A DNA stretch of 64,000 nt from Liolophura sinensis (lineage: Eukaryota > Mollusca > Polyplacophora > Chitonida > Chitonidae). The notes beneath the pieces were generated by a model that saw nothing but the letters and a program-made list of their open reading frames with translations, ran no database searches and was not told the DNA's origin. Both the position numbers and the translations under genes were made by a program. The stretch is taken from positions 10,465,385-10,529,384 of the forward strand of contig NC_088295.1 of the NCBI RefSeq assembly GCF_032854445.1, given 5' to 3'. This document shows, piece by piece, positions 20,301 through 26,300 of this stretch. Within the stretch, counting starts at the first letter, position 1. Each line of letters begins with the position of its first letter.

Positions 20301-23300
20301 ATCAAATGCCTTCTAAACTGAACAGTTTACCTGGAAGGAAACAAAACAGTTTTTCATTCAAGAAAGGGCTGAATTGTGCAGAGAACACTTTACCTTACGA
20401 TCTACCCCCTGGCTGGGATGACCCTTCCTTAGCTGAGCCCAGTGTTCAGCGTCAGCCCCCCTCAGGGATTGAGCCTAATTATAACAGACCACGTTACCAT
20501 GGTGATCAAGAAGTACCGAGGAAACCACTGTTTGCTTCAGGCGGAGGTCCCACTAGTAAGTGTAAATGGAGTGATGATTGTATTAAAACCTTTCAATGGG
20601 AGTTATTTACGCATTTGTCCCACATGATGTCATATATTCATTTATATCCGAAAAATCCAACAAAATCCAAAATCAGTGACTGTAACGGGTTCCTGGGTTA
20701 AACATGTTCAGGTCACTATATGGCTGCAGTACTGACAGAGTGACGATAATCATTCATTCACTCTAAATTAGCGATTTGTTTGTTGAGCCAGTATAAAATA
20801 TGAATACAGCTAGTACATGAATAATTAGGAAGCTGACTTGAACGTAATTATCAGTGAATACTATTTTTAATGATATTAGTGTTAATCTAGACAGATACAA
20901 TGAAAACAGTTGGCAGGTTTTTTGCAGCATGATATTTTTGGAATAGTCGACACTGCGACTATAGAATTTTTAATTCTCACTCTCATTAACATGTTACCAG
21001 GTCCAGGAAATAGTAAGTTTTGTATTACTTACGTAGTGATCTGGCGTTTCCTCTTGTAAATATGTCATGAATCTTGTATTACTGGTGTGAAGAGTGGTTT
21101 AAGTGAAATAATTTCAGTTAAGTTATGATTCATAAGTAGGCAACAACTACTAGATTTTCTGCACGCATGATGTATTTAGTACATTGCCCTGTGAATGTGT
21201 TGATCAACTGAACATGATATCCGGTTGTGACAGGTGCTTTGAGAGGGAGGTCCTATGGCAGCCACCAGCCCGCACAGACACCTCCAAGCTTTTACAGGAG
21301 AGCTGAAGTAAGCTACTTGATCTCCCCTTTCCTGGTTTTATTTGCAGTTTTGTGTGTACCTCCGCTCTTTGGCATTGTACTACAATTTTTGAAAACAGTA
21401 GCAGTGTTTTATGTTCAAACTATTTTTTCTATATCCAGTTGTGGTACTTACTGATTGATTTGCCCCTGAAATAGCCTGACACCAGCAAGTGTTAGATTCT
21501 GTACATCTGCTGTGGAAGACACAAGAACTTAAACAGGGAGAGAAGAGAGAGAGAGAGAGAAAATGCTGTGGCTTTATGTCAGAAGATTTGTTGGTTATGA
21601 AACAAGGTGCTGTGGTTTTCTCCAGGCCCTTCTCACTCCTCCACAGTCATAGTATTAAGTGACATATTGTTCAGTACAGCTAAATCACCAAGCTCATACT
21701 CAAATAAAATCTGGTGGAAGGCCAATAACACAAGGTTGTAAAGTGGTCAGTTTCCCACGAACTGTCATATATCCTACTCTGGCTGCCATTCTCTACAGGT
21801 AAATAAAATATCTTTATTAAAAGCATCCGTCAAGTGTGGAAATGAGTAACCACACACTTGTATATCTGTGTTTACTTTGTGTTAGTACAGGTGGGTAGAG
21901 AGAACCCTGACCCATTCAAACAAGAGGCAGATGTGGACGAGGACAGCGCAATCGGTCCATTCAGAACAGCAAAGGAACAGCTGGTATATAGTCATGCTGT
22001 TAACACCCTTATATTCAGAACAGCCAAGGAACAGCTGGTATACAGTCATGCTGTTAACACCCTTACATTCAGAACAGCCAAGGAACAGATGGTATACAGT
22101 CAAGCTGTTAACACCTTTACATTCAGAACAGCCAAGGAACAGCTGGTATACAGTCATGCTGTTAACACCCTCACAGAACAGCCAAGGAACAGCTGGTATA
22201 CAGTCATGCTGTTAACACCCTTACATTCAGAACAGCCAAGGTACAGTTGGTATACAGCCATGCTGTTAACACCCTTACATTCAGAACAGCCAAGGAACAG
22301 CTGGTATACAGTCACGCTGTTAACACCCTTACATTCAGAACAGCCAAGGAACAGCTGGTATACAGTCATGCTGTTAACACCTTTACATTCAGAACGGCCA
22401 AGGAACAGCTGGTATAGTCATGCTGTTAACACCCTTACATTCAGAACAGCCAAGGAACAGCTGGTATACAGTCATGCTGTTAACACCCTCACAGAACAGC
22501 CAAGGAACAGCTGGTATACAGTCATGCTGTTAACACCCTTACATTCAGAACAGCCAAGGAACAGCTGGTAAACAGCCATGCTGTTAACACCCTTACATTC
22601 AGAACAGCCAAGGAACAGCTGGTATACAGTCATGCTATTAACACCCTTACATTCAGAACAGCCAAGGAACAGCTGGTATACAGTCATGCTGTTAACACCC
22701 TTACATTCAGAACAGCCAAGGAACAGATGGTATACAGTCACGCTGTTAACACCTTTACATTCAGAACAGCCAAGGAACAGCTGGTATACAGTCATGCTGT
22801 TAACACCCTCACAGAACAGCCAAGGAACAGCTGGTATACAGTCATGCTGTTAACACCCTTACATTCAGAACAGCCAAGGTACAGTTGGTATACAGCCATG
22901 CTGTTAACACCCTTACATTCAGAACAGCCAAGGAACAGCTGGTATACAGTCACGCTGTTAACACCCTTACATTCAGAACAGCCAAGGAACAGCTGGTATA
23001 CAGTCATGCTGTTAACACCTTTACATTCAGAACGGCCAAGGAACAGCTGGTATAGTCATGCTGTTAACACCCTTACATTCAGAACAGCCAAGGAACAGCT
23101 GGTATACAGTCATGCTGTTAACACCCTCACAGAACAGCCAAGGAACAGATGGTATACAGTCATGCTGTTAACACCCTTACATTCAGAACAGCCAAGGAAC
23201 AGCTGGTAAACAGCCATGCTGTTAACACCCTTACATTCAGAACAGCCAAGGAACAGCTGGTATACAGTCATGCTATTAACACCCTTACATTCAGAACAGC

Positions 23301-26300
23301 CAAGGAACAGCTGGTATACAGTCATGCTGTTAACACCCTTACATTCAGAACAGCCAAGGAACAGCTGGTATATAGTCACGCTGTTAATACCCTTACATTC
23401 AGAACAGCCAAGGAACAGCTGGTATACAGTCATGTTGTTTACACCCTTACATTCAGAACAGCCAAGGAACAGCTGGTATACAGTCATGCTGTTAACACCC
23501 TTACATTCAGAACAGCCAAGGAACAGCTGGTATACAGTCATGCTGTTAACACCCTCACAGAACAGCCAAGGAACAGCTGGTATACAGTCACGCTGTTAAT
23601 ACCCTTACATTCAGAACGGCCAAGGAACGGCTGGTATACAGTCGTGTTGTTTACACGCTTACAGAACAGCCAAGGAACAGCTGGTATACAGTCACGCTGT
23701 TAACACCCTTACATTCAGAACAGCCATGGAACAGCTGGTATACAGTCACGCTGTTAACACCCTTATGTTCACAATCACCAAAATAAGACAGGCTACATGT
23801 ACACTGATGTTGCAATTTTAATGTGCTGCCTTGTTTGAAGTTATAGAGGGGGTAATGCCTGAGTAACCTGTAGTAACACTTGTGTTGAATGACTGCAGAA
23901 AATTTGTCAGGTGCCATACGAAATCCAGTTTCGGTTTCCTCCAGCTATAAAAATTGCTGTTATGCGGATGAATTACAGTTGAGTAAAATGTAAAATGAAT
24001 AAAAGAATTCCATTTATGTGATTTGCAGTAATTGTAAGGAGCAATGTCCACATGTATACATACTGCCCTCACACTGCCTTTACACTAGACCTGTAGAACA
24101 TACCAGGACAAACCTCTTGGTTGTTGTGAGTGAACATTACCTGCCTCAGAAGACTCAGTGCAAAAACAAACAGTTAATTACACTCCCTCAGAAAACATCG
24201 TGGAATGCAGATTCTGAAGTATTTGAGGCGTACCATTTGTGATACATTCTATGTAACAGTTATGCAGTAAATACAATTGTAAGATACCTATATATTTATA
24301 TTCTTTCCACAGTCGATAAACCAGCAGAAGAAGTATGGACAGAACAGGGGGCCAGTTAAACCTGCCTCTTATGGAAATGTGAAAAAGTCCTTAGGAACAA
24401 GGTGGGTAGATTTCCCAACACGAACTGTATTGTCATAATATATATATATGTAACTATCTGTATCATAACATAGAACCAGTTTTCAAGGTAATGAGCGTTC
24501 TTTACACAGATCATAACAGCACATGTCTGTGAAGTGTACAACAGTTCACTACTTCATGGAAGTATTACATAGTATATTAAAATCAGTATATTACTATGTG
24601 ACAAACACTGGATGTGACTAGGCTGTGCACCCCAGTCTACATGTGGCTGGGGTGCCATCGGTGTTTAATACATGTATGTTAACCAGCTCCTCTTTGATGT
24701 CTATCAACCTGCTTTTTTTTCAACCAGTCTTTGAGTCTGGCTCTGAATTGTCTGCTGAATGATGGGGGGAGGTTTGAAGGAGGATCAGTGAATAGAGACC
24801 GTTGTTAAAGTAGAACTGAATGCTAGAGTTGGAATTTTGTTCATTTTATCTGAGTTCAGTGTTACACTTGTAATATATTTTGCCTTCCTGATGTATAAAT
24901 GTGCTATACTGTTACCGTATGATGTGTAAATCAGGTGACATAATTTTCCCAAACCAAGTACACATCTGTGTTGTGGAAATACTGTTCATAGATTTCGTAA
25001 CAATGAAGTGGTGCTGTTACAGTATCACTGAACATCTCTAAGAAAGTGTAATAAAGAGAAGGTTCCTGTGCCACTAGTTGTAATTTGGAAGCTAATGGTG
25101 GGGTATTGTGGTATGTTCACATCTATGTTGTTGTGTTGTAGAAGAGGCCCAGGCAGTAAGTTTGTTCCTCCAGTTGTTGGACGAGAGGAAACAGGGGACA
25201 GGTGAGTCAGTCTAACAGAAAACAGGTAGCAACACTCTTAAAGTAAGCCCTATCAGTGGTTGATTCGGGCAAAGAATCACCCTGAGTACCTCAATGAGAC
25301 CTCTCCGTGATGTCTGAGGGATTGTTATTCGCGCAACAAAGTGCGGTTGTTGTATTTTCATTTTTCTACACCCATGAACTTAAAATATGTTGTTTTCTGA
25401 AGAGTGTGGTGGACACCCTGGCTATGTGAGTTATATCATGTCTCAATCTGACTGCATATAACAGGAACTAGACCTATTTGACATGTTAAGAACAGTTGCT
25501 AGGGAAACGCAATGTAATGCCAAAGGGTTGACATGTGGAGTTGTCTCAGGTACCGTATATGAGTCCTTGTGGTGAAGTTCAAGGATCCAGTTTCCTGCAC
25601 CCATGGTCCACACTGCCATTAAATAATAAAGCACTCTTTGAGTACAGCATAGAACTCTGGTCAAAGAGACATAATTTTTTAAAATCAGATGAAAATGGAA
25701 TGTAATAAACAAGTGATACATAAATAGAATGCTATGAAACGATAAAGCACTCCTCCAGTGGAGCATTAAACTCCAGTCAAAGAGATATAATTTTTTTAAA
25801 AATTAGAGGAATATGGAATTAAATGAAGAAGTGATGAATAAATACTGAAATGACATTCATAACAGATGAATGTGTCAGGGGCCAAGCTAAGCAATCAGAT
25901 CCAATCTTTACAAAATTCCAGCAACCTCATCCTTCGTAAAGCCGGGCCAAATAAAGCTTGCCCTGGTGGAGAAGAGCCTGTTGATGAGAGACTGAAGGGC
26001 TTGGAGCCAAAAATGATTGAGCTTATCATGAATGAGGTTTGTGATTTGAAATTCTGCTCCATGTATGCTGAGTCAGGAACTACAACTTTTGTCATTGATT
26101 CAATTTGATTACAGTTGTTAATGAGCAAATATAATATGGTATTACATGCAGGAAGTGATTTTCTCAGATCCCTGTTATTTGTTTGAAACTGCCTTGAATA
26201 ATTCCACTACATGTCTGATGTATGTTAAATATGAGCATCTGTTATTTAGGCAGTGTTCAGGTATAATACTTATCTCAAACTAACTAAAATATAGTGTTTG

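What the first reader, a model, noticed from the sequence alone, without database searches (positions are those of the whole stretch)
21959..23766. Minisatellite that multiplies an exon end, its splice donor and a RAD51-binding motif
Each of about 34 units carries 26 nt of FIGNL1 exon 7 (encoding FRTAKEQL) and 28 nt of intron, with GT kept at the junction. FRTA is the FxxA motif through which FIGNL1 family members bind RAD51. The first four units are in one frame ([26 protein letters not shown]...) and their donors at 21984, 22038, 22092 and 22146 are all phase 0 for exon 8. Choice of donor would therefore give proteins with one to four FxxA motifs, and array length could change splice choice. 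Translation of extra units is inference; the repeat and the phases are seen directly.
Basis: partly seen in the sequence, partly recalled or inferred. Interest (0 to 1): 0.88.

Follow-up and report, generated by a model that had tools for sequence, protein, structure and literature searches.

The report
Minisatellite spanning a FIGNL1 exon end
In a chiton's DNA-repair gene FIGNL1, the last 26 bases of one exon and its splice signal are repeated about 34 times in tandem; this is a real example of a known kind of repeat, and whether the extra copies ever reach the protein is untested.

Summary
At 21958-23765 lie 34 tandem units (26 of 54 nt, 2 of 52, 6 of 50), each with the end of a FIGNL1 exon (FRTAKEQL) and the start of its intron, GT kept in 34 of 34. 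FRTA is the FxxA motif that binds RAD51. The other 29 are out of phase, behind a stop, or both.

Arrays that copy an exon-intron boundary are a known kind, amphioxus 'mirages', reported not to disturb splicing. Contig lengths identify the chiton Liolophura sinensis. Minisatellites filled 24% of 200 kb sampled from it, so an array on a splice site is no surprise.

There is no clear coding constraint on the extra units, most copied donors score below the native one, 6 of 34 units lose the F, and orthologues join FxxA straight to the next exon. Best reading: mostly neutral minisatellite, native donor mainly used. Isoforms with 2-5 FxxA motifs remain possible; no RNA could be examined.

The parts
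21958..23765 (+). Minisatellite of 34 units; 26 nt of exon end + intron start, GT at each junction
21891..21983 (+).
21984..21985 (+). Native 5' splice site GT (unit 1), phase 0
22038..22039 (+). Copied donor, unit 2, phase 0, open frame (2 FxxA)
22092..22093 (+). Copied donor, unit 3, phase 0, open frame (3 FxxA)
22146..22147 (+). Copied donor, unit 4, phase 0, open frame (4 FxxA)
22464..22465 (+).
21958..22595 (+). First 12-unit block; 632 of 638 bases equal the next 638 bp
24313..24401 (+). Next FIGNL1 exon (SINQQKKYG...), starts in phase 0
25142..25201 (+). FIGNL1 exon with the second RAD51-site motif FVPP

Best explanation
A minisatellite began as a tandem duplication of a 54-bp stretch straddling a FIGNL1 exon end and its 5' splice site and grew to 34 units inside the intron. 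Shown: unit make-up, unit 1 as the true exon end, 12-unit repeated blocks. Inferred: growth by unequal exchange or slippage. It works like the 'mirages' of amphioxus, in a chiton genome crowded with minisatellites. Splicing mainly uses the first, native donor and removes the array with the intron, so the protein has one FxxA motif (inferred). The copied donors are cryptic sites without clear coding constraint; five of the 34 donors, the native one included, could give in-frame protein, the rest a shifted frame or a stop (frames shown, use inferred).
For: Array and units. Orthologues join FxxA directly to the next exon. Variable columns 9 of 26 exon-like, 12 of 28 intron-like (Fisher p 0.59). 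F lost in 6 of 34 units, frame broken by 50- and 52-nt units. 30 of 33 copied donors score below donor 1 by a recalled weight matrix. Local folding gives donor 1 0.62 unpaired, donors 2, 3, 4, 10 0.16, 0.15, 0.23, 0.22. 57 arrays cover 48,080 of 200,000 bp sampled. Amphioxus precedents. No tandem FxxA among the 219 relatives listed.
Against: Donor 1 is weak, the lowest of 10 modelled FIGNL1 donors; units 12 and 24 score higher and unit 27 equals it; U1 duplex energies do not favour it. Units 8, 9, 20, 21 are predicted as open as donor 1 (0.64). Over all 34 units non-consensus letters are fewer in the exon-like part, 17 of 860 against 35 of 948 (p 0.034, units not independent); over the 17 distinct units 14 of 434 against 24 of 474 (p 0.19). 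No RNA seen.
Confidence: 0.8

Rival explanations
1. The array is used: alternative donors add one to four further FxxA motifs on 10-residue spacers ([14 protein letters not shown]; 18 residues per unit), giving FIGNL1 proteins with graded, BRC-like valency for RAD51. The last motif always keeps its native distance to FVPP, because every donor joins the same exon in the same phase.
For: Five open phase-0 donors; FxxA is a real RAD51 site; weak native donor; in human duplicated genes, boundary repeats can generate alternative transcripts (passages).
Against: No transcript evidence; no listed relative has tandem FxxA; linker and frame not preserved beyond unit 4; 54 being a multiple of 3 makes equal phases unremarkable; donor 10 adds a long out-of-frame stretch between motifs 4 and 5.
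Confidence: 0.12
2. The array harms or tunes expression: copied donors are used at a low rate and mostly give shifted frames or stops, so transcripts are destroyed and array length sets FIGNL1 level.
For: 29 of 34 donors would give a shifted frame, lie behind a stop, or both; the paper on amphioxus globins notes such sites could give aberrant transcripts (passage).
Against: Amphioxus cases are reported to splice regularly; nothing here measures RNA.
Confidence: 0.06
3. The array, or its size, is an assembly artefact.
For: Blocks of 638 bp are 99% alike, a shape that assemblers can miscount; FIGNL1's last exons show two apparent frame breaks that could be base errors.
Against: HiFi reads averaging 8,347 bp at 14x are several times longer than the 1.8-kb array; 17 distinct unit types; such arrays are common in the sampled stretches.
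Confidence: 0.02

Closest known systems
Amphioxus 'mirages' (Adh3, troponin C, globins BflGb6 and BflGb9, PGBD5); PMC3087553 and PMC3902484, passages read
   Same: Minisatellite-like tandem copies of an exon-intron boundary with splice signals in the units, true boundary at one edge. In PGBD5 the first repeat abuts a 5' splice site and further repeats were annotated, without transcript support, as an extra exon.
   Different: Mollusc (chiton), 34 units (3 and 6 in the two BflGb6 haplotypes), and the copied piece is a short RAD51-binding motif with several in-frame donors. Effect on splicing and length variation unknown here.
Internal tandem repeats at exon-intron boundaries of human duplicated genes; PMC2812944, passages read
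   Same: Minisatellite units at exon-intron boundaries that may change splicing.
   Different: There, transcript support exists and units average 30 bp repeated 4 times; here no transcript was seen and the array is far longer.
BRC repeats of BRCA2
   Same: Would be several FxxA motifs in series if copied donors were used; FIGNL1's FKTA is predicted to bind RAD51 like BRC4 (passage).
   Different: BRC repeats are translated diverged units with a second motif (recalled); here translation is unshown and units are near-identical 18-residue repeats.

Membership tests
Mirage (exon-intron boundary minisatellite) | Tandem units that each span an exon-intron boundary | tested here: met
   34 units, exon-like and intron-like parts; boundary fixed by orthologues
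Mirage (exon-intron boundary minisatellite) | Splice signal repeated in the units | tested here: met
   GT in 34 of 34
Mirage (exon-intron boundary minisatellite) | Regular splicing is undisturbed | not testable with these tools
   No RNA data reachable
Mirage (exon-intron boundary minisatellite) | Length instability between individuals or cells | not testable with these tools
   One assembly only; 99% alike 638-bp blocks hint at recent growth
FIGNL1 (host gene) | AAA ATPase domain | tested here: met
   PF00004 E 2.2e-39 on the joined-exon model
FIGNL1 (host gene) | RAD51-binding FxxA and FVPP before the AAA domain | tested here: met
   FRTA and FVPP 44 residues apart; match to 8r64_B
FIGNL1 (host gene) | Intact C-terminal part | tested here: inconclusive
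   Exon pieces to the C-terminus are found up to 31250, but the reading frame changes near 29270 and 30120; the Pfam model stops before this
BRCA2-like BRC repeats | Serial FxxA motifs in a translated protein | not testable with these tools
   Serial in DNA; translation unshown
BRCA2-like BRC repeats | Second conserved motif after FxxA (LFDE type, recalled) | tested here: not met
   Unit peptide [18 protein letters not shown] has none

The most novel reading that the evidence does not exclude
A minisatellite gives a chiton FIGNL1 a choice of five in-frame splice donors, so that individuals or tissues make proteins with one to five serial RAD51-binding FxxA motifs, each ending with the native FxxA-FVPP spacing: repeat-made control of the valency of an anti-recombinase.
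Probability: 0.1. Interest if true: 0.82.

Novelty: new member of a known kind. Interest (0 to 1): 0.4.

Why it matters
It carries the 'mirage' structure, which the papers read describe for amphioxus, to a mollusc whose sampled DNA is about a quarter minisatellite. Because the copied piece is an in-frame binding motif and public RNA of the species exists, the question whether such arrays ever change proteins, or only ride along in introns, can be tested directly here.

Tried and rejected
Amphioxus origin, suspected from the mirage literature: rejected. Branchiostoma lanceolatum FIGNL1 scores 488 bits against 530 for Patella caerulea and 522 for Haliotis rufescens; the 48-row tree puts the window with molluscs, annelid, nemerteans, priapulid and brachiopod, with weak support; contig lengths then identified the chiton assembly.

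In-frame mini-exons inside the array (54-nt units end in TTCAG, acceptor-like): a 19-nt exon shifts the frame (by arithmetic) and the 69-nt version has a stop. Degenerate array beyond 23765: no excess over shuffles (285 of 500 reach the score). Stable RNA fold of the unit: z -0.47. Another mirage in the window: none of the other six arrays overlaps the 12 modelled FIGNL1 exons; other genes are too little annotated to say. In L021 an array stops 34 bp before a presumed exon start, so the splice site is outside it. The 112 array-edge reading frames gathered were searched against no library.

The search with the hypothetical four-copy region returned nothing at E 0.001 from 4,277 candidates. As it returned no ordinary FIGNL1 either, it had no power and is not evidence. 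Paper searches of the held library with 0 papers: tandem repeat + exon-intron boundary + splice donor + minisatellite, minisatellite + exon-intron junction + tandem duplication + splice site, FIGNL1 + minisatellite. Minisatellite + exon-intron + mollusc listed one paper, on an abalone kinase gene, seen in the listing only.

Full report
What is there. Window 21958-23765 is a 34-unit minisatellite, period 54, 92% matches. It has 26 units of 54 nt, 2 of 52 and 6 of 50, and all 34 carry GT after the exon-like part. Unit 1 is the true end of a FIGNL1 exon (21891-21983). Joined to the next two exons, its translation matches human fidgetin-like protein 1 (8r64_B, E 5e-11), and abalone and limpet FIGNL1 place consecutive residues on the two sides of the intron. 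A DNA search of the genome with 442 bases of the array gave 6 matches, all at this place (that search skips very common words and scores only the best candidates).

The motif. FRTA corresponds to human FKTA. Passages state that FIGNL1 binds RAD51 through FxxA, tested with F295E/A298E (PMC11162793), and that FKTA and FVPP are two RAD51 sites about 40 residues apart (PMC7617353). Here they are 44 residues apart with the native join; 14 of 117 relatives measured have exactly 44 and 93 of 117 have 44-47.

Frames. Donors 1, 2, 3, 4 and 10 (21984, 22038, 22092, 22146, 22464) are in phase 0 with no stop before them; the other 29 of 34 are out of phase, behind a stop, or both. Because 54 is a multiple of three, runs of equal phase need no selection. 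The 52- and 50-nt units break them, and the unit after each 50-nt unit has lost its F, so 28 of 34 encode FxTA.

Are the copies used? Nothing found shows it. Variable columns: 9 of 26 exon-like, 12 of 28 intron-like (p 0.59). Non-consensus letters over all units: 17 of 860 against 35 of 948, p 0.034, but units are copies of each other; over the 17 distinct units 14 of 434 against 24 of 474, p 0.19. So a slight deficit in the exon-like part cannot be ruled out. By a recalled weight matrix 30 of 33 copied donors score below donor 1, unit 27 equals it, and units 12 and 24 exceed it; donor 1 itself is the lowest of 10 modelled FIGNL1 donors, and U1 duplex energies do not favour it. Local folding predicts donor 1 open (0.62) and donors 2, 3, 4 and 10 mostly paired (0.16, 0.15, 0.23, 0.22), with units 8, 9, 20 and 21 as open as donor 1 (0.64). 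Of the 219 relatives listed by two capped searches (of 7,957 and 7,983 that passed), 164 have one F.[TS]A before the Walker A motif, 29 two and 26 none, some of these truncated; the two motifs are at least 26 residues apart and are not tandem copies.

Where it comes from. Contigs C1 to C5 have exactly the lengths printed for the longest scaffold and scaffolds 10-13 of the chiton assembly GCA_032854445.1, which also has 632 scaffolds. It was published as Liolophura japonica and corrected to L. sinensis (correction read whole). Its HiFi reads average 8,347 bp at 14x (passages), so single reads can span this array; I could not look at them.

Background. Counting period at least 10 and at least 5 copies, 57 arrays cover 48,080 of 200,000 bp in 20 chosen stretches of 10 kb (19 of 20 hold at least one), and 7 arrays cover 11,300 of 64,000 bp in the window. 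The stretches were picked at even steps from 8 contigs, not at random. In such DNA an array that takes in a splice site is not surprising. One of the 7 window arrays overlaps one of 12 modelled FIGNL1 exons.

Known kind. Tandem repeats spanning exon-intron boundaries were named 'mirages' in amphioxus Adh3 and reported in globin, troponin C and PGBD5 genes; they are said not to disturb regular splicing, to vary in length, and to offer a route to new introns (PMC3087553, PMC3902484, passages). In PGBD5 the first repeat abuts a 5' splice site and further repeats were annotated as an exon without transcript support. In human duplicated genes boundary repeats can generate alternative splicing (PMC2812944, passages). 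The present array is a long member of this kind in a mollusc.

History. Blocks of 12 units (638 bp) recur with 632 of 638 and 633 of 638 equal bases in two registers, which suggests recent growth by block duplication (inferred). Unit 1 has one base seen in no other unit and two seen in only one other each, in line with array edges escaping homogenisation, as described for amphioxus.

Verdict. Observation confirmed, with a fifth in-frame donor and the loss of F after short units added. Interpretation partly supported: the anatomy is right; use of extra donors is unshown and probably not the main outcome. It can be tested with public RNA reads, which I could not reach.

Noticed in passing
L007-L026 (20 stretches of 10 kb) and the whole window: The chiton genome looks crowded with minisatellites: 48,080 of 200,000 bp sampled and 11,300 of 64,000 bp in the window. 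The published repeat table gives 0.08% for simple repeats, microsatellites and RNA and 14.04% unclassified, so this class may have gone unnamed.
   Followed up: partly
29127-30182: FIGNL1's reading frame appears to change twice in the C-terminal exons, near 29270 and 30120, against abalone, limpet and scallop orthologues. It may be base error, a faulty allele or decay; intact relatives exist.
   Followed up: partly
43528-46834: A 3.3-kb array (period 58, also 29) lies between a transporter-like frame at 41913-42491 (PF03151) and a frame at 46897-47559 that looks like its next exon, with strong strand asymmetry (GC skew -0.59 at 44001-46000).
   Followed up: no
12251-13104: A GC-richer 63-bp array whose unit shares, by eye, the string CTGACAGACC-like piece of a dispersed SINE-like repeat seen near 29570-29800; perhaps a minisatellite born from a SINE.
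   Followed up: no
L021:998-1604: A 23-bp-period array ends at 1569, 34 bp before the presumed start of a long frame that looks like a zinc-finger protein, without taking in the splice site.
   Followed up: partly
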